Part shown: piece after piece, positions 39,955-53,389 of the stretch
Numbering within the stretch: position 1 is the stretch's first letter
How the letters are laid out: each line of letters opens with the position of its first letter
Source of the DNA: Archangium violaceum
GTDB taxonomy: Bacteria; Myxococcota; Myxococcia; Myxococcales; Myxococcaceae
Direction: 5' to 3'
Length of the DNA: 64,000 nt
Assembly (NCBI RefSeq): GCF_016887565.1
Contig: NZ_CP069396.1
Span: 895,001-959,000 of the forward strand
Position numbers and translations under genes: made by a program
The notes under the pieces: model-generated
The model's database searches: none
The model's input: the letters and a program-made list of their open reading frames with translations, nothing else
What the model was told of the DNA's origin: nothing

Positions 39955-40389
39955 ATGAACGACTTTCCCATCACCGTCCGTTTTCCCATGCACTGGGGCG
40001 ACATGGACGCGTACGGCCACGTGAACAACGCGCGTTACTTCACCTGGTTCGAGGCGGCCCGAATCGCCTACATGGCGCGGGTGGGGCTGGTGAGCACCGA
40101 GATGCAGAAGCCCGAGGGGGGCGTGGGACCCATCGTCGCCGCGACGAACGCGGAGTACCTGCGCCCGGTCGTCTTCCCGGCGGACCTGGTGGTGGGGGCG
40201 CGAGTCTCGCGGCTCGGTACCACCAGCATCACCATGGAGTACGCGGTGGACGATGCCCACACCGGGGTGCGCTACGCGCGCGGGGGCGCGGTGCTCGTCA
40301 CCCTGCAATACCCCACCTACCAGAAGGTGGCCGTGCCTCCGGAGATCCGCGCCGCCATCGAGGCGCTCGAGGGCCGCATCTTCGAGTGA
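39955..40389 (+). CDS. 4HBT hot-dog acyl-CoA thioesterase
   Basis: A 144-residue protein from ATG 39955. The motif HWGDMDAYGHVNNARYFTWFE holds the catalytic Asp of the 4-hydroxybenzoyl-CoA thioesterase (YbgC/FadM) group. The rest (VAATNAEYLRPVVFPADLVVGARV, SITMEYAVDD) completes the hot-dog fold. It hydrolyses acyl-CoA thioesters by family; chain preference is not visible. It converges with the next gene, leaving 18 bases. Confidence 0.9.
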   Translation: MNDFPITVRFPMHWGDMDAYGHVNNARYFTWFEAARIAYMARVGLVSTEMQKPEGGVGPIVAATNAEYLRPVVFPADLVVGARVSRLGTTSITMEYAVDDAHTGVRYARGGAVLVTLQYPTYQKVAVPPEIRAAIEALEGRIFE

Positions 40390-40407
40390 GGTGGGAGCGT
40401 TCGGGCG

Positions 40408-41439
40408 CTACCCTCCGCGGCGCGCGTCCGCGGGGGCGTTGGGGTGGCGCTGGAGCAGCATGCGCAACTGCGGTTGCCTCCGGACGGCCTCCTGCTTGAG
40501 CAGGTGCGCGATGAGGGCCGGCGGCGCCGCGCTCCAGCGCGCGATGTTCTGGATGAGCATGGGCGAGCGGTACGTGCGCCCGCACAGCAGCGCCCCCGTC
40601 TTCCCGTCCACCGCCAGCCCCACCAGCGAGGCCAGCACCCGGCCCTCGGTGTTGAGGATGAGCTCCACGCGTTCCTCCGCGGGCGCGGTGTTGAAGCGCG
40701 TCCGCATCACCTCGCGCGCGGTCCGGCGGGTGCCCTCGGGCACGTCCCGGTCCATCGCCACCTTGTACTGCTCCAGCAACCGGCGGCCGCTCCACAGGCG
40801 GCGGTAGAGCCCCGCGGGCAGCTGCGGGTTGCGCACCAGCCAGCGTCTCACCCCCGTGTCCGCCACGAAGGCCGCCCGGCCACACAGGGCCTCGAGTCCC
40901 ACCGGGTTGTGGTGGTGGCGCGCGATGAGCCGCGCGTGCCCCAGTCCCACCCGCGTGTTCTCCAGCACCGACTTGATGACCGCGGGCACCGGATCGAAAC
41001 AGAACGCGGACAGCTCCGGATCCTCCGCGCCCCGGGCCCTGCTGGCGCGCTCGTCCTCGGGGAGCGGGTGCAACTGCCGCTCGAAGATCTGCCTCCAGTT
41101 GCCCGCGGCGGCCTCGACCGTGGCGTCCTCGGGGGCCTCTTCCTCCCCGGCGGCGAGCGGCTCCTCGCCCTCGGCCGGTGTGTCCTCCTCGGGCGGAGCC
41201 TCGGCCCTGGCCCCGGTGGACGGCGGCGGCGCGGAGGTGGGCGCGGGTAGGACGGCGCCGTGCTCGACCAGGCGCGTCAGGATGGCCTGGATGCGCTCGG
41301 GAGGGAACCCGGTGAGGGCCGTGAGGTGCCTCACGGGCGTGGCGCCGTCCAGACGGGACAGGACGAAGCCCTCCTCGGGGGTGAGGGGGAGCTTCGCCAG
41401 GGCGGCCGAGGGAATGGGCTTGGGCGTCCAGTCGTTCAC
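40408..41439 (-). CDS. myxobacterial protein with winged-helix-like N-terminus
   Basis: A 343-residue soluble protein. Residues 18-65 (PLTPEEGFVLSRLDGATPVRHL, GFPPERIQAILTRLVEHGAV) look like the winged-helix segment found in many myxobacterial multi-domain proteins. Residues 70-110 are an acidic, Pro-rich linker. Residues 115-343 are helical with repeated AEER/LL patterns (VLENTRVGLGHARLIARHHH, GRVLASLVGLAVDG, IQNIARWSAAPPALIAHLL), perhaps HEAT-like. No enzyme motif. Function unknown. Confidence 0.75.
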   Translation of the reverse strand: MNDWTPKPIPSAALAKLPLTPEEGFVLSRLDGATPVRHLTALTGFPPERIQAILTRLVEHGAVLPAPTSAPPPSTGARAEAPPEEDTPAEGEEPLAAGEEEAPEDATVEAAAGNWRQIFERQLHPLPEDERASRARGAEDPELSAFCFDPVPAVIKSVLENTRVGLGHARLIARHHHNPVGLEALCGRAAFVADTGVRRWLVRNPQLPAGLYRRLWSGRRLLEQYKVAMDRDVPEGTRRTAREVMRTRFNTAPAEERVELILNTEGRVLASLVGLAVDGKTGALLCGRTYRSPMLIQNIARWSAAPPALIAHLLKQEAVRRQPQLRMLLQRHPNAPADARRGG

Positions 41440-41546
41440 GATCCGTCTCCCCGGAGACCGTCAAGCCTAGACGAATGACACAGAAGCGCCAAAGAGGTGT
41501 GGCGGAGGGTTGACGAATGGGGAGGCTCCAGCAGCACAATTCACCT

Positions 41547-41948
41547 ATGAACGAGCGCATCCCGACCTACGCCGAGTTCTGGCCGTACTACCTGCGTGAG
41601 CACTCGCTGCCCATCACCCGCTGGTTGCACTTCGTGGGCACCTCGCTGGCGGTGGGGCTGGGCGTCACCGCCGCGCTGACGGGCAGGGCGGGCCTGGTGC
41701 CGGCCATGCTCGTGGCGGGTTACGGCTTCGCCTGGGTGAGTCACTTCACCCTGGAGAAGAACCGGCCGGCCACCTTCAAGTACCCCCTGTGGTCGCTCTT
41801 CTCCGACTTCCGCATGGCGGGCCTGATGCTCGTCGGCCGGCTCTCCAAGCACCTGGCCCGCGCGGGCGTGCGTGACGAGGACGACCAGTCCGGCGGCCAC
41901 CTCCGTCCGATTCCGGTGCCCGTCCGCTCGCGCCGCAACGGGCGCTGA
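41547..41948 (+). CDS. Mpo1-like (DUF962) membrane protein
   Basis: The product has 133 residues from ATG 41547; an in-frame start at 41517 adds ten. The start YAEFWPYYLREHSLPITRWLHFVGT and the FTLEKNRPATFKYPLWSLFSDFRM segment are diagnostic of DUF962. The yeast member Mpo1 is a dioxygenase that alpha-oxidises phytosphingosine-derived fatty acids. The conserved His residues H19 and H28 and the later H-x-x-x-E-x-NRP are present. Two or three short membrane helices. An oxidation role in lipid metabolism is inferred from Mpo1. Confidence 0.88.
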   Translation: MNERIPTYAEFWPYYLREHSLPITRWLHFVGTSLAVGLGVTAALTGRAGLVPAMLVAGYGFAWVSHFTLEKNRPATFKYPLWSLFSDFRMAGLMLVGRLSKHLARAGVRDEDDQSGGHLRPIPVPVRSRRNGR

Positions 41949-42062
41949 GCCTCGGGGCCTGACCGGGGGAATCACTCCCCCGGTCCAGAGGAAGCGGGCA
42001 GGCAGCCAGGGTGCGAGGGTTCTTTCCTCTCCGCCCCTCCACTGGTCTACCTTGCACGCTCC

Positions 42063-43820
42063 ATGCAGCCCCCCGCCGAGTCGTCCCCGAGCGTGCTTCC
42101 TCGCTGGTTGGCCCCCGTGCTGTGCACGTTGGCGGGCCTCGGCTGGAGCGTGTACATCATCGGCCTCGAGCCCCTCCTGCCCGGCTCCATCGAGTGGATG
42201 GTGCAGGATGACTGGGCCCAACCGCTGTTCGGCTGGCTCTACTCGCGCACCAGTCCCTGGAGCCTCCCCATGGGGGACTCCTCGGGCTACCTCTACCCGC
42301 TCGGCACGTCGCTGGCCTACATGGATGCCACGCCGTGGTGGAGCACCCTCTTCAAGCCGCTGTCCCCGCTGCTGCCCCTGACCTTTCAAATCCATGGCCC
42401 GTGGCTGGCGCTCTGTTTCTCGCTGCAGGGTCTCTTCGGCGCGCTGCTCGTCTCGCGGCTCTCCCCGCGTCCGCTGCACCAGGTGCTCGGGGGCATGCTC
42501 TTCGTGATGTCCCCGGCCCTGGCCATGCGCCTGGGCCACCTCTCGCTGTGCGCGCACTGGCTGGTGCTCGCGTCGCTGTGGCTCCACCTGCGGCCCCTCC
42601 CCGATGCGCGCGCCGCCTCGCGCACGCTGGGCCTCGCCGCCTTCTTCGTCGTGCTGGCCGCGGGCGTCCACGTCTATCTGGCCACCATGGCGCTCGCCCT
42701 GGCGCTCGGGCTCGTGCTGCGCCTGTGGCGCGTGCAGGGCCTCCTCTCCGGCGCGAGGGCCGGGGCATGGGCGGCCGGCCTCTCCGGCTCGGCGCTCGGG
42801 GTGATGGCCCTGTTCGGCTACTTCTCCCGCGCCACCACGTCCGCCTCGGGCTTCAACCACTACTCGTCCAACCTCCTCACCTTCATCAACCAGGGCGGCA
42901 TGTCGCGCTTCCTGCCGGAGATTCCCACCGGCGGCGGGCAGTACGAGGGCGCCGCGTACCTCGGGCTCGGCGTGCTCCTGGTGGGCTTCGCGTCGCTGGG
43001 GGTGCTGCTGGCGAAGCGCGAGCACTTCGGGCCGCTGCTGCCCCCGGGGCTCTGGCCGCTGTTGACCGTGTGCGGGCTCATGGCGCTCTTCGCCTTCTCG
43101 GCCCGCTTCCAGTTCGCCGGGTGGACCGTCCTCAGCTTCCAGCGTGCCTCCGAGGTGGTGCTCGCGCCGCTCGCCCGCGTCTTCCGCTCGTCCGGGCGTT
43201 TCATCTGGCCCCTGCACTACCTGCTCATCCTTGGTGCCATCGCGGGCCTGCTGCGCGTGCTGCGCAACCGCCCGGCCTGGGCCGCCGCCGCCCTGGGGCT
43301 CGCCGTGGTGCTCCAGGGCGCCGAGGTGCCCGCACAGGACTGCTGTCGCGCCCGCTTCACCCCGCACGTGCGGCCCGTGCCCGGAGGCGACGCCACGTGG
43401 GCCCTGGCCAAGGGGACGTACCAGCACCTCGCCCTCTACCCCGCCACGCGCGTGGATGGTGCCGGGCGCGGCTGCCCGGGCCTGTTCACCAACAGCGAGC
43501 TGCTCCCCTACGCCTGGCAGGCCTGGCTGAACGGGATGACGTTCAACAGCGGGTATGTCGCCCGGCTCGATGCGCCCGCCACGCTGGCCACGTGCGAGCG
43601 GGAAGAGGCGGACGTCCAGGCCGGCCGCCTGTCGCCGGACACCCTCTACGTGGTGCATGCCCAGGTGGCCGAAAGCTTCCTGGCGAGCACCGCCGGACAC
43701 GCCGCCTGCGGCAGGGTGGACGGGGTGCTCGTCTGTGTGTCCAGCGAGGTCCAGGGGCCCTTCCGCGAGGCGCTCGCACGGGAGCCGGTGACGGCGGACG
43801 TGGCCCGGGACACGCCGTAG
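42063..43820 (+). CDS. DUF6311 polytopic membrane protein, GT-C-like
   Basis: A 585-residue protein with about eleven hydrophobic helices in the first 430 residues and a periplasmic C-terminal part. The loop after the first helix has WMVQDDWAQPLFGWLY and SPWSLPMGDSSGYLYPLG. An acidic motif after TM1 and the overall plan resemble GT-C glycosyltransferases that use polyprenyl-linked sugars. It fits the DUF6311 family. The soluble tail has Cys pairs (DCCRARF, GRGCPGLF) likely joined as disulfides. A sugar-transfer role in the envelope is inferred. Confidence 0.75.
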   Translation: MQPPAESSPSVLPRWLAPVLCTLAGLGWSVYIIGLEPLLPGSIEWMVQDDWAQPLFGWLYSRTSPWSLPMGDSSGYLYPLGTSLAYMDATPWWSTLFKPLSPLLPLTFQIHGPWLALCFSLQGLFGALLVSRLSPRPLHQVLGGMLFVMSPALAMRLGHLSLCAHWLVLASLWLHLRPLPDARAASRTLGLAAFFVVLAAGVHVYLATMALALALGLVLRLWRVQGLLSGARAGAWAAGLSGSALGVMALFGYFSRATTSASGFNHYSSNLLTFINQGGMSRFLPEIPTGGGQYEGAAYLGLGVLLVGFASLGVLLAKREHFGPLLPPGLWPLLTVCGLMALFAFSARFQFAGWTVLSFQRASEVVLAPLARVFRSSGRFIWPLHYLLILGAIAGLLRVLRNRPAWAAAALGLAVVLQGAEVPAQDCCRARFTPHVRPVPGGDATWALAKGTYQHLALYPATRVDGAGRGCPGLFTNSELLPYAWQAWLNGMTFNSGYVARLDAPATLATCEREEADVQAGRLSPDTLYVVHAQVAESFLASTAGHAACGRVDGVLVCVSSEVQGPFREALAREPVTADVARDTP

Positions 43821-43844
43821 GCCCTGGTGTACAGGTGCGGGGCG

Positions 43845-45476
43845 ATGCGCTCCCGACTCCTCGTCCCGCTGTGTCTGCTGCTGCCCTCCCTCGCCCTCGC
43901 CGGTGATGCCCGCTGCAAGGGCACCGCCCAGGCCCGCGCCGCCCGCTTCTCCGAGAAGGCGCTGAAGGGCAAGTCCCCCGCCGAGCGCTACGCCGAGTAC
44001 GTGCGCGCCTGCGCCCTCGACGAGGTGGTGGACCTCACGAAGTCGCTCGTCCGCTTCAAGACGGTGAGCAGCGAGCAGCCCGCGGCGAAGAGCCCGGAGA
44101 TCGCCGCCATGGGACGCTTCCTGGAGAAGTGGGCCCGTGGCCGGGGCCTCGGCTTCCGCGCGGTGGGCGGCAACGAGGTGTTCGAGCTGTCCTGGGGAGA
44201 GGGTGAGCCGCGGCTCGGGTTCGTCTTCCACGGAGACGTGGTTCCCGCGCCGGCGCACGAGTGGAAGAAGCCGCCCTTCGAACCGTATGTGGAGAAGGGC
44301 CGCCTCCATGGCCGGGGCGTCGAGGACGACAAGGGGCCGCTGGCCTCCGCGCTCGTGGCGCTCGCGATGGCGAAGGAGCTGGGACTGTCCCCGCGGCAGG
44401 GCAAGGTGCTCGTCATCGTCGGCAACGGCGAGGAGAGCGACTGGACGGGCATGCAGCAGTACGCGGAGACGCAGAAGCCGCACCCCACGCACGTCATCTC
44501 GGTGGACTCGGACTACCCGGTCATCGCGGCGCAGTGTGGCTTCGTCGCCTGGCAGCTCGAGGCCGAGCTGGGGGCCGTGCCGGAGAAGCCCACCGAGGGC
44601 CAGCTGCGCGCCGTGGACGTCACCGCGGGCGAGTTCCTCACCCAGGTGCCCGGTGCCGCCACGCTGAAGCTGGAGCCCGCGGGACTCGCGCCGGAGAAGG
44701 CGCTTGCCGCCGTGCGGGAGGCCGTGGCCGCGGTGGGCAAGGAGCGCCCCTCGCTGCGCGCCGAGGTGAAGCAGGAAGGCAACCGGGTCATCCTCACGAC
44801 CCACGGAAAGGCCGTGCACGCCTCGGTGGCGGAGGAGGGGGCCAACGCCCTGTGGGACCTGGCCGCCGTGGCCGCGAAGCTGCCGCTGGAGCCCAACGGC
44901 ATCGAGGCCATGCTGAAGGCGGTGACGCTCCGCTTCGATGGGGACCACTGGGGCGAGAAGCTGGGCGTGGCCTACCAGGACGAGCTGATGGGCCGCCTCC
45001 TCGTCGCGCCCACCGTGCTGCGCGTGAAGGACGGCAAGGTGGGCCTGGGCATCAACATGCGCCGGCCCCGGGGCAAGGATGCGGCCGTCTTCAACGCCTC
45101 GCTCGATGCCGCCGCGGAGCGGCTCTCCCAGGACACCGGTGGCCGGGTGAAGGAGGTGAAGGGCGGAAAGCCGGGCGAGGGTGGCCGCTACGTGGGTGAC
45201 CCGCATGTGGCGGACACGTCCGGGCCGCTCGTCACCACGCTGCTCGACATCTACAAGCGGCACCGCAACGAGCCGGACGCGAAGCCACAGTCCGTGCGCG
45301 GTGGCACGTACGCGCGCCTCTTCCCGCGCTCCGTCGACTTCGGGCCCGCCTTCCCCGGGGACCTCTACACGGGCCACGCCCCGGACGAGTCCATCTCGCT
45401 CGACAACCTCGACGCCACCACCCGCATGGTCGCCGAGGCCCTCCACACGCTGGCCCTCACGCCGCCCGAGAAGTGA
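43845..45476 (+). CDS. exported M20 family dipeptidase
   Basis: The 543-residue product starts at ATG 43845 at its signal peptide (LLVPLCLLLPSLALAG). M20 zinc-peptidase motifs: FVFHGDVVPAP (metal His/Asp), GRGVEDDKGPLASAL (bridging Asp) and GNGEESDWTGM (catalytic Glu pair), then a dimerisation domain, and GHAPDESISLDNL with the last His. It matches the dipeptidase (PepV/Sapep-like) branch. Periplasmic peptide turnover is likely. It ends 30 bases before the convergent PtuB gene. Confidence 0.92.
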   Translation: MRSRLLVPLCLLLPSLALAGDARCKGTAQARAARFSEKALKGKSPAERYAEYVRACALDEVVDLTKSLVRFKTVSSEQPAAKSPEIAAMGRFLEKWARGRGLGFRAVGGNEVFELSWGEGEPRLGFVFHGDVVPAPAHEWKKPPFEPYVEKGRLHGRGVEDDKGPLASALVALAMAKELGLSPRQGKVLVIVGNGEESDWTGMQQYAETQKPHPTHVISVDSDYPVIAAQCGFVAWQLEAELGAVPEKPTEGQLRAVDVTAGEFLTQVPGAATLKLEPAGLAPEKALAAVREAVAAVGKERPSLRAEVKQEGNRVILTTHGKAVHASVAEEGANALWDLAAVAAKLPLEPNGIEAMLKAVTLRFDGDHWGEKLGVAYQDELMGRLLVAPTVLRVKDGKVGLGINMRRPRGKDAAVFNASLDAAAERLSQDTGGRVKEVKGGKPGEGGRYVGDPHVADTSGPLVTTLLDIYKRHRNEPDAKPQSVRGGTYARLFPRSVDFGPAFPGDLYTGHAPDESISLDNLDATTRMVAEALHTLALTPPEK

Positions 45477-45506
45477 GGCCCGTCGGCGCTCGTGCGCGAG
45501 CCCGAG

Positions 45507-46196
45507 TCAGAGTGAGCCACCCGGCCGGGGAACGGGTCGGGTGGCCGCGTCGAAGCAGGAGCGGCAGGTTCCCGGGAAGGCATCGATGAACGCCTGCCGC
45601 ATCTCGGGTTCTGCCTCGAAGACGGCCATCCAGACGGACCAGTGGCCCTGACTTCTCGCCGAATCGATGATGGCGTCGCGGATGTCCGGATCGCCTCTTT
45701 TCCGCTGCCATCTTCCCAGGCTCCGCTGGGCCATGTCCCAGGCCTCGCGCCGATTGAGCCAGCGGAGATCCCGAGAGCGGGGATCGCTCGCGGGGGTCTT
45801 GTCCAGGCCGAACAGCTTCAGCGTCCTGCGCGCTTTGTCCCGCTGTTCCGGTGCGAGCTCGGGATGGGGGGAAATGAGTCCTTCCTCTCCGTAGCGGAAG
45901 GCACGCGCCGTGTTGTCCCTGTCGGGCAGATAGACGTCGGAGGTCTGTGCTCCCTTGGTGCCGTTGCAGTTGGCGCAGGCGAGCAGGAAATTCTCCCAGT
46001 CGAGCTCCCGGTGTGGGGCATGGAGCTTGGGCTCGATGTGGTCGATGGTCAGGGCTGCGCTCTGGCGTACCTCGCAGTACGCGCAATACCTGCCGAATCT
46101 CGCGATGAGGCTCGATTTGGCTTCCTGGTAGACCGCCATTCGCACTGGATGCCCGGCGGTATCCAGCGGGTGAGGGCCTCGCTCGACAGGCCTCAT
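45507..46196 (-). CDS. ptuB: HNH endonuclease, PtuB-like (Septu)
   Basis: A 229-residue nuclease. It starts MRPVERGPHPL, the family opening, and has an HNH fold with a zinc knuckle: CAYC (38-41), ALTIDHIEPK (D52-H53), then LLACANCNGTKG (74-82). This layout is that of PtuB/TIGR02646 nucleases. Its ATG overlaps the ATPase stop (ATGA), and the two-gene order ATPase then HNH is that of Septu anti-phage systems. When triggered, Septu is thought to damage nucleic acid and block phage growth. The identity is strong by motif and operon; anti-phage activity is inferred. Confidence 0.85.
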   Translation of the reverse strand: MRPVERGPHPLDTAGHPVRMAVYQEAKSSLIARFGRYCAYCEVRQSAALTIDHIEPKLHAPHRELDWENFLLACANCNGTKGAQTSDVYLPDRDNTARAFRYGEEGLISPHPELAPEQRDKARRTLKLFGLDKTPASDPRSRDLRWLNRREAWDMAQRSLGRWQRKRGDPDIRDAIIDSARSQGHWSVWMAVFEAEPEMRQAFIDAFPGTCRSCFDAATRPVPRPGGSL

Positions 46197-47488
46197 CGAG
46201 GTTCCTCGTCCTGGCCCAGTCCGGCGGCCTCACGTTCCATGCGCAGGAAGGCGTGATACGCCACGTTGTCGCTGAAGGGCGCGGACAGCTCATCGAGTCG
46301 GAGCTTGAGGGACTCGCGCCGTTCTGGAGACGTGGTGGCCTTGGCCTCTTGGAGGACCCGGTAGTACTCCTCCGCCGCCTCCATCATCTTCTGGTAACGC
46401 TCGCTGCGCTGCGGCACTTCGACGCCCATCACCTGCTCGGCGATATCCTCGATGCTCTGACTCGGAGGCCCGGATTGCGTGGGCTCCTCGAGGTTGATGA
46501 GCTCCCCAGGTCTCAATGACTGGATGATGAAGGGCGAGTGCGTCGTCGCCACGAACTGGACCTGGGGGAAGGTGGTGCGCAGGTCATCCACCACGCGCCG
46601 CTGCCACTTGGGGTGGAGGTGGAGGTCGATCTCATCGATGAGGACGATGCCCGGCGTCTGTTCCGCCGCGCGCTCTCCGAGATGTGGATTCAGGACGGCC
46701 GCGCGGTAGGCGATGTCGGCCACCATCGCCAGCATGTTGCGCACGCCATCGCTCAGCATCCGAAAGGGCAGCTGACGCCCGTCCTCGGCCTCCGCGAGCA
46801 GGTCATCCTGGTTGATGTCGAACCAGACCCGCTTCCATCCCACCATGCAGCGGACCACGGCGGTCTTCACTGCTTCCAATGTTCCGATGGTTCGCCCCTG
46901 TTGGAGCTGCACCAGCTCCATTCTCTTGGCCCATTTCAGAAGCAGCTTCTGATTCGAGGCGGGATCCAGACAGCCGATATACCCCTCAAGTCGTGAGGTG
47001 GGTGGCGCGGGTTCCAACGGGTGCTCATGCTTCTGTAGCCAGAGCCGTCCCGTTCCATAATAGGAGAGGAGCGGCAACGTGATGTCCTGTCCTGCCTGCA
47101 CCTGACGCTGCCAAGTGGCTGCGATCGGCAGGAGTGGATTCTCATGGATGTTGAGGGTGTATTCGTCCTTGGAGCGGCGCCACGAGAGTTGCTCGCCTTC
47201 CAGCCGACCCGTGCACTGCACCTGGACCGGGAACTGCTGCTCGATGGTGGCGATTCCATCCTTCAGGTAGACGACCCGGCGAACGTCATCCTCTCGAACG
47301 AAGGGGGCCGAGATTTCCTTCAGGGTGATTCCGACGAGGAAGCTCCCCGCCCCGATGGCCAACGCATCCAGCACGGCCGTCTTGCCGGCACCGTTCTCGC
47401 CGATCAACACGTTGAACTGGTCGGAGAGCGTGAAGGTGCGCTGGTCGAAGCCGCGGAAATTGGTGACCTCGAGTCGGTGAATCTTCAC
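46193..47488 (-). CDS. ptuA: AAA/ABC-type ATPase, PtuA-like (Septu)
   Basis: A 431-residue ATPase. GTG 47488 is preferred over upstream starts because AGGAGG lies just before it and MKIHRLEVTNFRGF is the natural start of this family. Walker A is GENGAGKT (30-37), the signature is LSDGVRNML (245-253), Walker B is IVLIDEIDLHLHP (from 281) and the switch His is in ATTHSPFIIQS. This is the OLD/PtuA type of SMC-like ATPase. It is fused in translation with the HNH nuclease downstream. In Septu the ATPase senses infection and controls the nuclease; the trigger is not visible here. Confidence 0.85.
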   Translation of the reverse strand: MKIHRLEVTNFRGFDQRTFTLSDQFNVLIGENGAGKTAVLDALAIGAGSFLVGITLKEISAPFVREDDVRRVVYLKDGIATIEQQFPVQVQCTGRLEGEQLSWRRSKDEYTLNIHENPLLPIAATWQRQVQAGQDITLPLLSYYGTGRLWLQKHEHPLEPAPPTSRLEGYIGCLDPASNQKLLLKWAKRMELVQLQQGRTIGTLEAVKTAVVRCMVGWKRVWFDINQDDLLAEAEDGRQLPFRMLSDGVRNMLAMVADIAYRAAVLNPHLGERAAEQTPGIVLIDEIDLHLHPKWQRRVVDDLRTTFPQVQFVATTHSPFIIQSLRPGELINLEEPTQSGPPSQSIEDIAEQVMGVEVPQRSERYQKMMEAAEEYYRVLQEAKATTSPERRESLKLRLDELSAPFSDNVAYHAFLRMEREAAGLGQDEEPR

Positions 47489-47562
47489 CCCTACCTCCTG
47501 CCGGTGCGTCCGGGCGACGGTGCCCACTGGGAGCCGATGCTCTTATGGCCCAACACGCGCCT

Positions 47563-49644
47563 TCAGGGAACGTCATTCCCGGCCGGCTCCTTGCCGGGCT
47601 CGGGGAGGCCGCGCGGCAGGCGCACGGTGAAGGTCGTGCCACCCGCCTGGGTGGAGTGCACCGTCACCTGACCCCCGTGCGCGTGCGCCACCTGCTGGAC
47701 GATGTACAGCCCCAGTCCCACGCTGCGCGTGGCTGCCTTGCCGGTGGTGCCGCGCCGGAAGGGCTGGAACAGCACCGCCTGAAGCTCGGGGCCAATGGGC
47801 TCTCCCTCGTTGTGCACGGAGAGGAGCACCTCGGGGCCGGCGTCGCGCACCTCCACGCGCACGGGCGTGTCCGGCCTCCCGTGCTGCAGGGCATTGCTCA
47901 CCAGGTTGCCCACCACCTGCGCCAGCCGGTCCGGGTCCCAGCACCCCCACCCGTCTCCCTCCACCTCCAACTCCAGCCTCCGGCCCGTGTTGGCCACCTG
48001 CAACTCCTCCACCGCGCTCCGACAGATGTCGTGCAGGTTCACCCGCTCGCGGTGCACGGGCAGTCCACCCCCGATGCTGCTGCGCGCGAAGTCGAGGATG
48101 TCCGTGAGCATCCTCGCCATCCTCGCCGCGCTGTTGCGGATGCGCTCCACCGCCCGCACTCCTCCCTCGCTCAGCTCCTCCGTCCTCCGCAGCAGGAAGG
48201 CCGAGGCGGTGATGGCGTTGAGTGGGTTGCGCAGGTCGTGCCCCACCACCGCGATGAGCTGCTCGCGCATCTCGCCGGAGTGGCGCAGCTCGGCCTCCAC
48301 CTCCTTCTGCTTCGTGATGTCCACCACCACGCAGCCCAGGCCCACCACCTCGCCGCTCTCCGTCCGCACCGGGTAGTAGTTGCCCAGCCAGTGACGGGTG
48401 GGGGTGTTCCCACGAGGCTGGCTGCTGAACTCGTGGTTGGACTGCGGCTGACCCGTCTCGACGACCCGGCGGAAGATGGGCTCGCAGACGTCGGCGACCC
48501 GGCTGGGCAGCACCTCCCGCACGGTCTTCCCCAGGTGGAAGTCCACGGGCTTGCCATGGAGCTCCGCCAGCGTCTCGTTGATGCGAAGGAAGCGCAGCTC
48601 CCGGTCCATGAGGCTGATGCCCACCGGGGCGGCCTCCAGCAGCGTGTTCAGCTGCGCCAGCGCTCGCTGCACCTCGTCCCGCGCCGCCCGCTCGCGCCCG
48701 GCCAGATCCGCCTGCACGATGAAGCCGGTGGCGCGGGTGATCATCGCGCGGAAGAGCAGCTTGTCGGACTCGCTGAAGTCGAAGACGGTCCGTGAGCTCA
48801 TGTGCGCCACGCCCACCAGGTTGTCCCCGTGCAGCAGGGGGATGCTGTAGCTGGCGCGAATGCCGAGCCGCCGGATGACGTCGTACGCCAGCCTCGGGTC
48901 GGTGGCCACCGAGCGCGAGGAGATGGGGTGACGCTCGGCGGCGACCCTGCCGCTGATGCCCTCGCCGATGGGAATGGTGTAGTCGTCGGCCAGCCCCTCC
49001 CGGGCGCCCAGCCCCTCGGCCGCGCGCACCCGCAGCCGGTCTTCCTCCCTCAGGAGGATGGAGGCCGCGTCCACCGCCACCGCCGCCTCCATCAACACCT
49101 TCAGCAGCTTGGGCAGGAAGGTGTCCACGTCCTCGCTCTCCAGCGCGGCCTGGGAGACACGCTCCAGCGCCTGCAGCATCCGCTCGCGCACCCGTGCGTA
49201 GCTGGTGACGGCGCGTGTGATGCCCTGGTCGATGGCCTCGTCGAGCAGCTCCAACTCGGCGAAGCTCGGCCAGTGGTTCTCCCGCTCCAGGCTCCGGAGG
49301 ATGCAGTTGCGCAGCAGTCCGTACTCGAAGGCCACCTCTCCCGGCTCGTACCCCAGCTCCAGCCGCTCCAGGGCGTGCTCGTCGGTGATGGCCAGGGGCA
49401 GCTGGGGGGCGTGCTCGTCGTGGACGTGCTCCGCCGCGTCCGCGAGCTTGTCCAGGAACTCGGGGATGTGGTCGCGCAGTTGCTCGCCGCCCGGCCGCTG
49501 CTCCGGGTGCCACGCGCGCAGGGCGCGCTCCCAGTCCGAGAGGATGTCCTCCCGGTGCTTGCGGAGGAAGTCCGCCAGCCGATGGGGTTCACCGGGCTCC
49601 GGACCGGATGGCCGGAGCGGTTGAGGTGGATCCTGGTCCCTCAT
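47563..49644 (-). CDS. GAF/PAS sensor histidine kinase with RsbRD-like N-terminus
   Basis: A 693-residue soluble kinase: RsbRD_N about 22-165 (LADFLRKHREDILSDWERAL), GAF 175-325 (DAASILLREEDRLRVRAAEG), PAS 340-460, HisKA with H469 (VVGHDLRNPLNAI) and HATPase_c (NLVSNALQHG, then VGLGLYIVQQ). There is no receiver domain. It shares domain order and C-terminal sequence with the kinase at 29262-32456, so the two are paralogues. It lies 74 bases before ptuA on the same strand; whether they are co-transcribed is uncertain, and no sensor kinase is part of known Septu systems. Confidence 0.9.
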   Translation of the reverse strand: MRDQDPPQPLRPSGPEPGEPHRLADFLRKHREDILSDWERALRAWHPEQRPGGEQLRDHIPEFLDKLADAAEHVHDEHAPQLPLAITDEHALERLELGYEPGEVAFEYGLLRNCILRSLERENHWPSFAELELLDEAIDQGITRAVTSYARVRERMLQALERVSQAALESEDVDTFLPKLLKVLMEAAVAVDAASILLREEDRLRVRAAEGLGAREGLADDYTIPIGEGISGRVAAERHPISSRSVATDPRLAYDVIRRLGIRASYSIPLLHGDNLVGVAHMSSRTVFDFSESDKLLFRAMITRATGFIVQADLAGRERAARDEVQRALAQLNTLLEAAPVGISLMDRELRFLRINETLAELHGKPVDFHLGKTVREVLPSRVADVCEPIFRRVVETGQPQSNHEFSSQPRGNTPTRHWLGNYYPVRTESGEVVGLGCVVVDITKQKEVEAELRHSGEMREQLIAVVGHDLRNPLNAITASAFLLRRTEELSEGGVRAVERIRNSAARMARMLTDILDFARSSIGGGLPVHRERVNLHDICRSAVEELQVANTGRRLELEVEGDGWGCWDPDRLAQVVGNLVSNALQHGRPDTPVRVEVRDAGPEVLLSVHNEGEPIGPELQAVLFQPFRRGTTGKAATRSVGLGLYIVQQVAHAHGGQVTVHSTQAGGTTFTVRLPRGLPEPGKEPAGNDVP

Positions 49645-49891
49645 GAGAGCGCTCCCCGAAGGCTGCCTCCCCGCCGCCAGCCTTGAGACTGCTCATGCAA
49701 GGAGGGCATGGCGTCGTACCAGCGAACCAGGAGGAGGCGCCCGGGAGGGGCCCGCCCCTTCCCTCGTCACGCCCCGGGGCGTCCTGGCGCTCCGAGGCCC
49801 GGCCGTCCATCCCCGGGGGCCCGGGTCCGCGCCGACTCCGGAGAAACGAGACCCCACCGGAGTAGAGGGGAAGGGTTAGGTTGGAGGCAAG

Positions 49892-50854
49892 ATGAGCACG
49901 CTCCTGCTGACCCGCACCGACGTCGTCCGCCACATGGAGGCCCTCACCCTGCTCTCGGAGATGCGCGAGGCCTTTCGCGCGGATGCCGAGGGCCGCGCGG
50001 TGGAGCCCCAGCGCGCCCGCGCTCCGCTGCACGCCCAGGGCTCCGCGCTGGTGGTCTTCCCCGGCATCCTGGCCGGCATCCCCGCCTACACCGTGAAGGT
50101 GCACGCGAAGTTCCCCGGCCGTTCTCCGGCCATCCAGGGCGTGGTGCAGCTGCATGACCTGGAGACGGGGGCGCTGCTGGCGGTGATGGACTCGGGGCAC
50201 CTCACGGCGCTGCGCACGGGGGTGGTGGGGGCGCTGGCCGCGGACGTGCTCGCCCGGCAGGATGCCGCCCGGGTGGCGCTCATCGGCGCGGGGGCCCAGG
50301 CCTCCATGCAGCTCAAGAGCCTGCGGCTGGTGCGCAGCCTCTCGCACGTGCGTGTCTACGACCTGGAGGTGACGCGCTCCGTGGAGTTCGCCGCCCGCAT
50401 GTACAAGGCGCTGAACCTGCCGGTGCGGCCGGCCATGTCGGTGGAGGAGGCGGTGGAGGACGCGGACATCATCGTCACCGTCACCCCGTCGCGAGAGCCC
50501 TTCCTCTTCCCGGGCATGCTGCGCGCGGGCACGCACGTCACCACCCTGGGCGCGGACGAGCCGGGCAAGGCCGAGGTCTCCGCCGGGCTGCTGCGCCAGT
50601 CCACCTTCTTCTGCGACAACCGGGCGCTCAACGTGGCCATGGGCGCGCCCGCCGGCGCGGGGCTCGGCGAGGAGTGCATCCAGGCGGAGCTCGGCGAGGT
50701 GCTGGCCGGCAGGAAGCCGGGGCGCACCGACGCGGGGCAGGTCACCATCTTCGGCGCGGTGGGGCTGCCCTTCCAGGACCTGGTGGCGGCCTGGCACGTC
50801 TACCAGGGCGCGCGCACGGACGACTCGGTGCAGCGCGTGGACTTCCAGGCCTGA
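49892..50854 (+). CDS. ornithine cyclodeaminase / mu-crystallin family protein
   Basis: A 320-residue NAD(P)-dependent protein. Substrate-side segments AYTVKVHAKFPGR and LTALRTGVVGALAA and the dinucleotide loop VALIGAGAQASMQ match the family, with IIVTVTPSREPFLF and VTTLGADEPGKAEV further on. Members act as ornithine cyclodeaminase, alanine dehydrogenase or ketimine reductase, so the exact reaction cannot be told. It ends 12 bases before the convergent DUF2171-like gene. Confidence 0.9.
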   Translation: MSTLLLTRTDVVRHMEALTLLSEMREAFRADAEGRAVEPQRARAPLHAQGSALVVFPGILAGIPAYTVKVHAKFPGRSPAIQGVVQLHDLETGALLAVMDSGHLTALRTGVVGALAADVLARQDAARVALIGAGAQASMQLKSLRLVRSLSHVRVYDLEVTRSVEFAARMYKALNLPVRPAMSVEEAVEDADIIVTVTPSREPFLFPGMLRAGTHVTTLGADEPGKAEVSAGLLRQSTFFCDNRALNVAMGAPAGAGLGEECIQAELGEVLAGRKPGRTDAGQVTIFGAVGLPFQDLVAAWHVYQGARTDDSVQRVDFQA

Positions 50855-50866
50855 GCCGGACCGTGC

Positions 50867-51124
50867 TCAGTGCGTGGTCCGGCGGCTCGAGCGGTCGATC
50901 TCCCTCGGGCCCGACAGGAGGCTGTCGGGGCCGTGGAGGAGGTGCACCTCGTCGGCGATGATCTCCCGCACGTCGTCGAGCGGCACGGCGTAGTCCTTGC
51001 GCCAGACGAGCAGCCCCTTCTCGACGATGAGCTCCTCGTCCGTCACCTCGACGACATGGCCGAGCTTCTCGCCACGGTGGGTGAATACCGGCATTCCCTC
51101 GTGCAGCTCCGAACGTTCCACCAT
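50867..51124 (-). CDS. DUF2171-like small protein
   Basis: The 85-residue product (ATG 51124, AGGAGAGG upstream) has the PRC-barrel-like pattern MPVFTHRGEKLGHVVEV, EELIVEKGLLVWRKDYAVPL, VREIIADEVHLLHG seen in DUF2171. It is soluble, with a charged tail (REIDRSSRRTTH). Function unknown; PRC-barrel relatives bind RNA or protein partners. Confidence 0.8.
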   Translation of the reverse strand: MVERSELHEGMPVFTHRGEKLGHVVEVTDEELIVEKGLLVWRKDYAVPLDDVREIIADEVHLLHGPDSLLSGPREIDRSSRRTTH

Positions 51125-51326
51125 GTACCCTCTCCTCCTCCCCGGGCAGGGGCCAGCGAGCGGCGACCCCGGATTTCAAGCTAGGAACGAGGAAACGGGG
51201 CGTCACCGGGCATGCGGCCAGGCACGTCCCGAGGGTTGGCCGGTGCACGGAGCCGCCGAGCGGCCGGGGACGCTGTGGGGCGGCCCCTGCATGCCCATCT
51301 TCAATCGGGCCTGGAGGAGGTGCTCG

Positions 51327-51617
51327 ATGATGGTGGGGTTTCTGGCTTCGAGGACGGGACGTTGGACGCGCATGCTGGCGGGCGCGAGCCTGGTGGTGGG
51401 CGGCCTGTCCACCGACTCCGTGAAGGGGAAGATGCTGGCGCTGGTGGGGCTGGTGCCATTGCTGGCGGGAGCGTTCGACGTCTGTCTCTTCGGCCCCTTC
51501 TTCGGCCTGCCCATGAAGGGCGAGGCCATCCGCCGCAAGGTGGGGCTCATCGGCGAGGACTCGCTGCTGCCCCATCCCCCCATGCCGATGACGGAGCGCC
51601 CCACGCTGCTGCACTAG
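51327..51617 (+). CDS. DUF2892 (YgaP-like transmembrane) protein
   Basis: A 96-residue protein; ATG 51327 stands behind GGAGGAGG. MVGFLASRTGRWTRMLAGASLVVGG and LVGLVPLLAGAFDVCLFGPFFG form two membrane helices with a Cys at the second helix end, the DUF2892 pattern found alone or fused to rhodanese domains. No rhodanese is attached here. A role in sulfur or redox handling is only suggested by the family. Confidence 0.82.
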   Translation: MMVGFLASRTGRWTRMLAGASLVVGGLSTDSVKGKMLALVGLVPLLAGAFDVCLFGPFFGLPMKGEAIRRKVGLIGEDSLLPHPPMPMTERPTLLH

Positions 51618-51620
51618 CGG

Positions 51621-52367
51621 CTAGGAGCGCACGTCGAAGGGGATGGAGAGGGTGCCGAACTGCTCGCCGGTGCGCGCGTCCACCAGCCGCGCCTGGAGGG
51701 TGACGCGGCCCTCGCGCTCGCTCACGTCCTGGAAGTAGAGGAAGCCGGTGATGGTGCCGCCCGTGTCCAGCGTGCCCTCGGGCAGGGCCTGCTTGAGCAT
51801 GTCGCGCGTGGGCAGCGGCTCCGGGGGGTCCCAATAATAGGAGTAGGGCCGGTAGAACGGGTCGTACCACGGGTCGTACCAGGGGTTGTAGATGCCCCCG
51901 CCCCGATGTCTCCAGCCGTAGTAGCCGGTGGCGAACGGCGGCCCCGCCCAGCCAGAGGACCAGCCGAAGCCCATGCCCACGGACATGCGGACGTTGCCAC
52001 CCGAGCCGCCGTAACCGGAGCCGCCGTACGCGGTGCCGCTCTCATCGGCCAGCTCGAAGGGGGAGAGCGCGGAGTACTGGAAGCGGGAGCTGCCCAGCAG
52101 CGTGAACACCTCGTAGCGGATGCGCAGGGGCCGGCCGCTCTGGTTCTCGATGCGGACCTGCACCGGGGTGACGATGCGCTCGAGGCTGGAGGGGGTGCCG
52201 CGCCAGGCGTCTCCGTCCGCCACCAGGCGCACGCCTTGTTCTTCGATCACCGCCGCGCCGGCCTGGGTCGTCTGGGCGGTGGGCAGGGGTTGCAACTTCG
52301 TCTCGGTCACGCAGCCCGCGGCGAGCAGCGAGGCCGCGAGCAAGAGCCAGGGAGCGCGCGTGCGCAT
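51621..52367 (-). CDS. Tyr/Gly-rich lipoprotein
   Basis: A 248-residue product from ATG 52367 behind AGGAGG. The signal ends ASLLAAGCVTET. The N-terminal half (RIVTPVQVRIENQSGRPLRI, YEVFTLLGSSRFQYSALSPF) and the end (GGTITGFLYFQDVSEREGRV) form an immunoglobulin-like beta fold. An unusual Gly/Tyr/Trp-rich loop lies between (YGGSGYGGSGGNVRM, YNPWYDPWYDPFYRPYSYY). It is probably an outer-membrane or periplasmic lipoprotein; function unknown. Confidence 0.75.
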   Translation of the reverse strand: MRTRAPWLLLAASLLAAGCVTETKLQPLPTAQTTQAGAAVIEEQGVRLVADGDAWRGTPSSLERIVTPVQVRIENQSGRPLRIRYEVFTLLGSSRFQYSALSPFELADESGTAYGGSGYGGSGGNVRMSVGMGFGWSSGWAGPPFATGYYGWRHRGGGIYNPWYDPWYDPFYRPYSYYWDPPEPLPTRDMLKQALPEGTLDTGGTITGFLYFQDVSEREGRVTLQARLVDARTGEQFGTLSIPFDVRS

Positions 52368-52465
52368 GGGGGGGCCTCCTGTTGGAAAAACTAGGAGTGG
52401 ACCCGAGCGCGTGCGCGAGGCCGTGGCGAGGCAGCCTGGAGTGCGGGCGGGTGCCGCGCGCTCTC

Positions 52466-53389
52466 TTATGAAGTATGCGAGGGCTCCGCGGCGGTGGTGC
52501 CCCGCCAGGTGGTGCCCAGCAGCCCGTCCCAGTCCTGCACGCGGGCCCAGTCCTCGAAGGTGTGCCAGCCCACCTCGGGGTAGTCGCGGCGCAGCAGGGG
52601 GATGTTGGCGTGATAGCCCTCGCGCTGGAGCCACTCGAACATGCGTCCCATGTCCTCGTTGAAGGAGCGGACGACCTCCAGCGGCGCCTCCTCGTAGCGC
52701 AGCTTGTGCCCGCTGACGTAGGAGATGAGGGCGGCGGCCTGCTCGCCCGTCACCTCGTCGGAGGCCACCTCGATGCGCCGGCCGAGGAGATCCTCGGGCC
52801 ACTCCAGCACCCGGACGCAGAAGGCGGCCAGGTCCGCCATGGAGACCATCTGCAGCCCGCGGTGGGGCGGCAGGGCCATGCTCAGCACGCCCTCGTGCAG
52901 CCGCTGGGCGAAGGTGGGCCCCAGGAAGTTCTCCATGAAGAAGACGGGGGCCACGATGGTGTAGGGCAGGCCACTCTGGCGCAGGTGCTCCTCCACCACG
53001 GACTTCGTCTCGAAGTGGGGGACGCCGGTGGTCTGGTCCGCGCCAGCCACCGAGGAATAGAGGAAGTGCCGCACGTGGGCGAGCTTGGCGGCGTCGATGA
53101 GGTGGCGGCCATGGCGCACCTCGCCCTCGAGGCCCCCGGCGTCGAAGGGGGTGGCCATGGCGAACACGGCATCCACCTCGCGGCGCATGGCGTGCTCGAG
53201 GCTGTCCGGGTCATCGAAGTCGCCGGTGACGAGCTCCGCGCCGCGTTGCTCCAGGTCCTTCGCCGCGGGCGAGCCCGGACTGCGGACGAAGGCGTGGACG
53301 CGATGTCCCCGCTTGAGGAGCAGGCGGGCGAGCGCGCCGCCCTGCTTTCCGGTGGCACCGGTCACCAACACGGTCAGGGGTCGGAACAT
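52466..53389 (-). CDS. NmrA-like NAD(P)-binding protein
   Basis: A 307-residue Rossmann-fold protein of the atypical SDR group. The dinucleotide loop is VLVTGATGKQGGALARLL. Further markers are GAELVTGDFDDPDSLEHAM, VFAMATPFDAGG, HVRHFLYSSVAGA and YTIVAPVFFMENFLGP. The usual YxxxK catalytic pair is absent, as in NmrA/HSCARG-type redox sensors, so it may act as an NADP sensor or as a reductase with changed chemistry. ATG 53389 follows an AGGAAT site. Confidence 0.88.
   Translation of the reverse strand: MFRPLTVLVTGATGKQGGALARLLLKRGHRVHAFVRSPGSPAAKDLEQRGAELVTGDFDDPDSLEHAMRREVDAVFAMATPFDAGGLEGEVRHGRHLIDAAKLAHVRHFLYSSVAGADQTTGVPHFETKSVVEEHLRQSGLPYTIVAPVFFMENFLGPTFAQRLHEGVLSMALPPHRGLQMVSMADLAAFCVRVLEWPEDLLGRRIEVASDEVTGEQAAALISYVSGHKLRYEEAPLEVVRSFNEDMGRMFEWLQREGYHANIPLLRRDYPEVGWHTFEDWARVQDWDGLLGTTWRGTTAAEPSHTS

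What the first reader, a model, noticed from the sequence alone, without database searches (positions are those of the whole stretch)
45507..47488. Two-gene Septu-like defence module
PtuA-like ATPase with intact Walker A, signature and Walker B, coupled by ATGA to a PtuB-type HNH nuclease with intact metal-binding Cys and DH. The pair is not marked by integrase, tRNA or repeats, so it appears as a single insert among housekeeping genes.
Basis: partly seen in the sequence, partly recalled or inferred. Interest (0 to 1): 0.55.

Follow-up and report, generated by a model that had tools for sequence, protein, structure and literature searches.

The report
Standalone Septu anti-phage gene pair
A two-gene bacterial immune module of the known Septu kind (an ATPase plus a nuclease) sits alone between two ordinary genes, in a place that is empty in a close sister genome; it is an ordinary new member of a known defence family.

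Summary
ptuA (46193-47488, minus, GTG start, 431 aa) and ptuB (45507-46196, minus, 229 aa) overlap by ATGA. Both match PADLOC Septu models over nearly full length (PtuA1 E 3.3e-146, PtuB1 E 5.5e-76). Walker A, LSDG signature, Walker B and the HNH Cys/His/Asn residues are intact and conserved in the aligned relatives. The PtuA model's ten best solved folds are E. coli Septu PtuA; the PtuB model is poor. No padloc hit in ten flanking ORFs, no tRNA in the window, no repeats marking the ends. In sister genome G004 the same M20-peptidase and histidine-kinase genes have stop codons 18 bp apart: an empty site. The ~2.1-kb insert carries only ptuAB and has the window's lowest G+C. Family copies occupy at least two other sites. 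I read it as Septu type I (non-retron): a PtuA ATPase oligomer holds PtuB, and infection unleashes a nuclease that aborts phage growth. The target (DNA or tRNA-Tyr, both reported for relatives) cannot be told from sequence. New member of a known kind; low interest.

The parts
46193..47488 (-). ptuA: 431-aa AAA/SMC-like ATPase (Walker A 30-37, LSDG 245-248, Walker B 282-286, H317)
45507..46196 (-). ptuB: 229-aa HNH nuclease with CxxC...DH...N...CxxCN..K
46193..46196 (-). ATGA stop/start overlap of ptuA and ptuB
47489..47499 (-). ribosome-binding-like sequence AGGAGGTAGGG next to the ptuA GTG start
   Evidence: read; not tested
45490..47582 (.). inserted segment (about 2093 bp) relative to sister genome G004, where 12 bp lie instead; ends set by local alignment, so approximate; G+C 63.9% against 69.9% for the window
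43827..45476 (+). left neighbour, M20 peptidase gene (not part of the system); 96% identical protein in G004
47563..49644 (-). right neighbour, GAF/PAS sensor histidine kinase gene (not part of the system); its last codons lie in the insert

Best explanation
This is a standalone (type I, non-retron) Septu anti-phage system. Shown: two intact overlapping genes of the PtuA and PtuB families with the catalytic residues that a tested relative needs, present as a bare two-gene insert. Inferred from relatives: PtuA, a RecF/SMC-like ATPase, forms an oligomer that recruits PtuB and keeps its HNH nuclease quiet; phage infection changes the ATP state of the complex, PtuB cuts nucleic acid (phage DNA or a host tRNA such as tRNA-Tyr, both reported for relatives), and phage production stops at a cost to the infected cell. 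Coupling by ATGA would keep the subunits matched. Trigger and target here are unknown.
For: PADLOC PtuA1 PDLC00278 E 3.3e-146 over residues 1-422 and PtuB1 PDLC00315 E 5.5e-76 over 1-223. E. coli Septu PtuA 8ee4 is the best PDB sequence match of PtuA, E 5.3e-54, and Septu PtuA chains are the ten best Foldseek matches of its model (mean pLDDT 67.5). The PtuB profile matches retron and Septu PtuB chains (best E 2.8e-9; Septu 8ee7 E 5e-7). ptuB lies directly downstream in 7 of 7 family genomes (own included) with a close ptuA, one pair shortened, and in 60 of 80 genome-contig loci by profile; 55 of the 56 of those PtuBs that span the HNH part keep CxxC..[D/E]H..N..CxxC. In Septu EcB88 substitutions in Walker A/B (K43, D316) or in H75 or N91 of PtuB abolished immunity (PMC13096335, passages); here the Walker lysine and aspartate are K36 and D285, and H53 and N69 have the same 16-residue spacing as H75 and N91. 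Empty site in sister G004.
Against: No functional test. The single-sequence match of PtuB to Septu PtuB is weak (8ee7 E 0.0024), and the PtuB model is poor (mean pLDDT 65.5, no match at E <= 0.001). PADLOC matching is broad: 66 and 183 PADLOC families of any kind match PtuB and PtuA at E up to 1, so a match names a family, not a tested activity. No padloc hit in the 10 flanking ORFs scanned, so no defence-island support. 20 of 80 relative loci gave no PtuB match to my profile; in 5 of these no HNH was seen in the one ORF examined. The NCBIfam Ec78 PtuA/PtuB equivalog models are below their cut-offs, as expected for a non-retron form.
Confidence: 0.88

Rival explanations
1. It is the effector part of a retron (Septu type II / type I-A retron) whose reverse transcriptase and RNA lie nearby.
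For: TIGR02646, named 'retron system putative HNH endonuclease', passes its cut-off for PtuB.
Against: The insert holds only the two genes, next to M20 peptidase and histidine kinase genes; no padloc hit in 10 flanking ORFs; no reverse-transcriptase Pfam match in 9 flanking ORFs; no Rfam match in 40000-53000; Ec78 equivalog models below cut-off. A crude YxDD motif check flagged 2 of 80 relative loci. The rest of the window was not scanned for a reverse transcriptase.
Confidence: 0.03
2. A non-defence ATPase/HNH pair, for instance a DNA-repair or housekeeping module.
For: PtuA shares RecF/Rad50-type ATPase motifs; no defence gene was found among 10 flanking ORFs.
Against: Best models are Septu for both proteins, best PtuA fold matches are Septu PtuA, patchy presence (close copies in 7 of 96 family genomes) at different sites, low G+C insert.
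Confidence: 0.06
3. An inactive remnant.
For: In the same genus G003 carries a shortened pair: PtuA matches only to residue 376 of 431 and PtuB only from residue 27, so decay occurs in this clade.
Against: In the window both frames are full length and the checked catalytic residues are intact.
Confidence: 0.03

Closest known systems
E. coli Septu PtuAB (PDB 8ee4, 8ee7, 8eea, 8sux)
   Same: ATPase PtuA + HNH PtuB; PtuA aligns over positions 1-363 of the 434-position family profile with the catalytic motifs kept.
   Different: Window PtuA is shorter (431 against 465 aa) and 26-30% identical in the ten best structure alignments; PtuB only weakly similar.
Septu EcB88 of E. coli (PMC13096335, passages read)
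   Same: ptuA + ptuB; same catalytic elements, with the H and N of PtuB 16 residues apart.
   Different: [quoted passage not shown] target unknown here. Its sequence was not compared here.
Retron Ec78/Eco7 and Ec83 PtuAB (type I-A retrons)
   Same: Same two protein families.
   Different: No reverse transcriptase or retron RNA found in the flanks scanned; PtuA is 542-552 aa in most solved chains; in the retron PtuBs aligned the second cysteine pair is not spaced as CxxC (other residue, or an insertion between).
Lone ptuAB pairs of other genomes of the family (G002, G003, G015, G016, G017, G042)
   Same: Same two-gene module; the five full-length PtuAs are 55-58% and the six PtuBs 48-50% identical to the window's; window PtuA is sister to those five (support 96/91).
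   Different: Placed at other sites; G003's pair is shortened.

Membership tests
Septu (type I) | PtuA-family ATPase with intact Walker A/B | tested here: met
   PADLOC PDLC00278 E 3.3e-146, residues 1-422; motif residues kept in 7 of 7 apart from T/S at 37
Septu (type I) | PtuB-family HNH nuclease with intact catalytic residues | tested here: met
   PADLOC PDLC00315 E 5.5e-76; Pfam HNH 38.8 bits against cut-off 21.4; residues kept in 8 of 8
Septu (type I) | ptuA and ptuB adjacent on one strand | tested here: met
   ATGA overlap
Septu (type I) | PtuA fold like solved Septu PtuA | tested here: met
   Foldseek E 4.6e-23 to 8eea_D on a medium-confidence model
Septu (type I) | PtuB fold like solved Septu PtuB | tested here: inconclusive
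   poor model; best E 3.7e-3 to a retron HNH chain, Septu 8eea_G third at 8.5e-3
Septu (type I) | PtuA and PtuB form a complex | not tested
   no multimer model or experiment was available
Septu (type I) | protects against phage | not testable with these tools
   needs a transfer experiment
Septu type II / type I-A retron | reverse transcriptase (ptuC) gene before ptuAB | tested here: not met
   none in the insert or in the flanking ORFs scanned; the gene before ptuA is a histidine kinase; definition from PMC8565338, passages
Retron Ec78 PtuA/PtuB equivalogs (NF041760, NF041761) | score above curated cut-off | tested here: not met
   206.5 against 500 and 55.6 against 150 bits

The most novel reading that the evidence does not exclude
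The clade of short PtuA with a two-CxxC PtuB, found here and in relatives from several phyla, is a functionally distinct Septu branch with its own trigger or nucleic-acid target, spread as bare two-gene inserts without any recombinase, and here placed directly behind a GAF/PAS sensor kinase gene so that it may be transcribed with it.
Probability: 0.12. Interest if true: 0.4.

Novelty: new member of a known kind. Interest (0 to 1): 0.2.

Why it matters
It adds a clean case of a two-gene defence module gained without visible mobile genes, with an empty site available in a sister species, and a PtuAB far from the E. coli ones on which the open question of target (DNA or tRNA-Tyr) could be tested. 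By itself it changes no picture of the field.

Tried and rejected
Retron reading: rejected for lack of a reverse transcriptase in the flanking ORFs scanned and of any Rfam match in 40000-53000. Mobile-element boundaries: the repeat finder over 45400-47700 gave two short direct and three short imperfect inverted repeats, none of which marks both ends of the insert. The promoter scan found none in 45300-47800 (0.2 expected) and one terminator-like site (1.3 expected) inside ptuA: uninformative. The PtuB structure model was too poor to use. Of the 80 relative loci, the 20 without a PtuB match to my profile were looked at in one neighbouring ORF each: by my reading 13 have a divergent HNH protein next to ptuA, 5 (L092, L095, L115, L124, L140) show none in the ORF chosen, and 2 (L123, L138) end at the contig edge. 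The motif count used the 56 of 60 PtuBs that span the HNH part; 55 fit the looser motif, 49 the strict one, and 4 have DH as the window does. The tree used 44 rows: the 7 of alignment A1 and the 37 of 80 loci scoring over 380 bits; the shortened G003 copy was not in it. Phage and plasmid records gave only matches below 60% identity (8 and 98 records at E 1e-5), so no near mobile source was found in those two collections. Paper searches: from the listings, none of the titles is about this locus; passages were read of PMC13096335, PMC11555353 and PMC8565338 only, and the 4 and 2 papers listed for Septu with myxobacteria or Myxococcota were not opened. That the host is a myxobacterium is my recollection from genome size and gene content; no call names it.

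Full report
What is there. The minus strand carries ptuA (47488-46193, 431 aa, GTG start with AGGAGGTAGGG next to it) and ptuB (46196-45507, 229 aa), overlapping by ATGA. PADLOC Septu models match both proteins over nearly full length: PtuA1 PDLC00278, E 3.3e-146, residues 1-422 of 431; PtuB1 PDLC00315, E 5.5e-76, residues 1-223 of 229. Pfam gives AAA_15/AAA_21 for PtuA and HNH for PtuB above their cut-offs. NCBIfam TIGR02646 passes its cut-off for PtuB (59.5 against 52.15 bits), while the retron Ec78 equivalog models fail theirs (206.5 against 500 and 55.6 against 150).

Structure-level comparison. The best PDB sequence match of PtuA is E. coli Septu PtuA 8ee4 (E 5.3e-54; profile E 1.5e-71). 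A medium-confidence AlphaFold2 model (mean pLDDT 67.5) has Septu PtuA chains as its ten best Foldseek matches (best E 4.6e-23). PtuB is more distant: 8ee7 E 0.0024 for the single sequence, 5e-7 for the profile; its own model is poor (mean pLDDT 65.5) and has no match at E <= 0.001, though its nine best matches are chains of retron or Septu PtuAB entries.

Residues. Of 17 PtuA positions checked, 16 are identical in 7 of 7 aligned PtuAs (G30, N32, G33, G35, K36, L245, S246, D247, G248, R250, V282, L283, I284, D285, E286, H317) and position 37 is T or S; in 8 of 8 PtuBs C38, C41, H53, N69, C74, C77, N78 and K81 are identical, while residue 52 is D here and E in the other seven (window included in both). 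In Septu EcB88, substitutions in Walker A/B (K43, D316) or in H75 or N91 of PtuB abolished immunity (PMC13096335, passages). H53 and N69 here have the same spacing as H75 and N91.

Insertion. The neighbours are an M20 peptidase gene (43827-45476, plus) and a GAF/PAS sensor histidine kinase gene (47563-49644, minus). In sister genome G004 the same two genes (96% and 89% identical proteins) have stop codons 18 bp apart; in G006 the two protein matches end 13 bp apart. Aligning each flank separately to G004, similarity stops at 45489 on the left and resumes at 47583 on the right, so about 2093 bp here stand against 12 bp there. The kinase's last codons lie in the insert. In G002 and G003 the place holds another pair of ORFs, one a class II DAHP synthase (Pfam on the G003 copy; the G002 ORF looks alike). 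In G005 the kinase relative was found without a close M20 relative. The insert's G+C is 63.9% against 69.9% for the window; of 248 segments of that length in steps of 250 bp, 1 is as low (that one presumably overlaps the insert). No tRNA in the window, no repeats marking the ends, no padloc hit in 10 flanking ORFs, no Rfam match in 40000-53000. Together this supports gain of a bare two-gene cargo in this lineage; loss in the sisters is not formally excluded. The way of insertion left no visible mark.

Relatives. In the family, 7 of 96 genomes searched (own included) have a close PtuA (E at or below 1.4e-133), all 7 with a PtuB next to it; that of G003 is shortened at the join. G002 and G003 share one site; G015, G016 and G017 share another; G042 shares no flank of over 250 bp with the other five or the window in that blastn comparison. 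In the tree the window's PtuA is sister to the five full-length family copies (96/91), amid sequences from Chloroflexota, Cyanobacteriota, Bacillota, Pseudomonadota and an archaeon, a pattern of horizontal spread.

How it probably works. By analogy with solved and tested relatives: PtuA forms an ATP-binding oligomer, recruits PtuB, and infection lets PtuB cut. E. coli ATCC 25922 Septu was reported to act on nicked DNA (as told in PMC11555353, passages); Septu EcB88 cuts tRNA-Tyr and retron Eco7 PtuAB depletes it. Which holds here cannot be told. The oligomer step rests on titles and recall; the paper on it was not held.

Classification. PADLOC's authors call ptuC(RT)-ptuA-ptuB Septu type II, the same as type I-A retrons (PMC8565338, passages); without an RT this is type I. 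It is a new member of a known kind. Interest is low.

Noticed in passing
Own genome G000: L143 4628-6720, L144 4642-6842, L147 4685-6660, L142 4524-5861, L146 4980-6227: Five further ATPase genes best matched by other PADLOC PtuA1 models; three of them (L143, L144, L147) have a PtuB1-matching HNH gene overlapping directly downstream, and L142 has a PtuB-like tblastn hit downstream (as L002). A sixth match (L145) was not scanned.
   Followed up: partly
L054, L055, L057 (G017, G015, G016): At one shared site the flanks are about 90-96% identical in DNA while most of the ptuAB stretch is only about 74-78% identical between G016 and the other two: the pair diverges, or is swapped, faster than its surroundings.
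   Followed up: no
L058 4508-6284 (G003): A shortened ptuAB: PtuA ends after about residue 376 and PtuB starts at about residue 27 of the window's proteins, as if one deletion had removed the join.
   Followed up: partly
L047 and L048 (G002, G003), between the M20 peptidase and histidine kinase genes: The same gap holds a class II DAHP synthase gene and a short second ORF in two sister genomes and nothing in G004 and G006, so this convergent gap tolerates different contents.
   Followed up: partly
L092, L095, L115, L140: PtuA-like ATPases without an HNH protein in the one neighbouring ORF examined: possible orphans or other partners.
   Followed up: no
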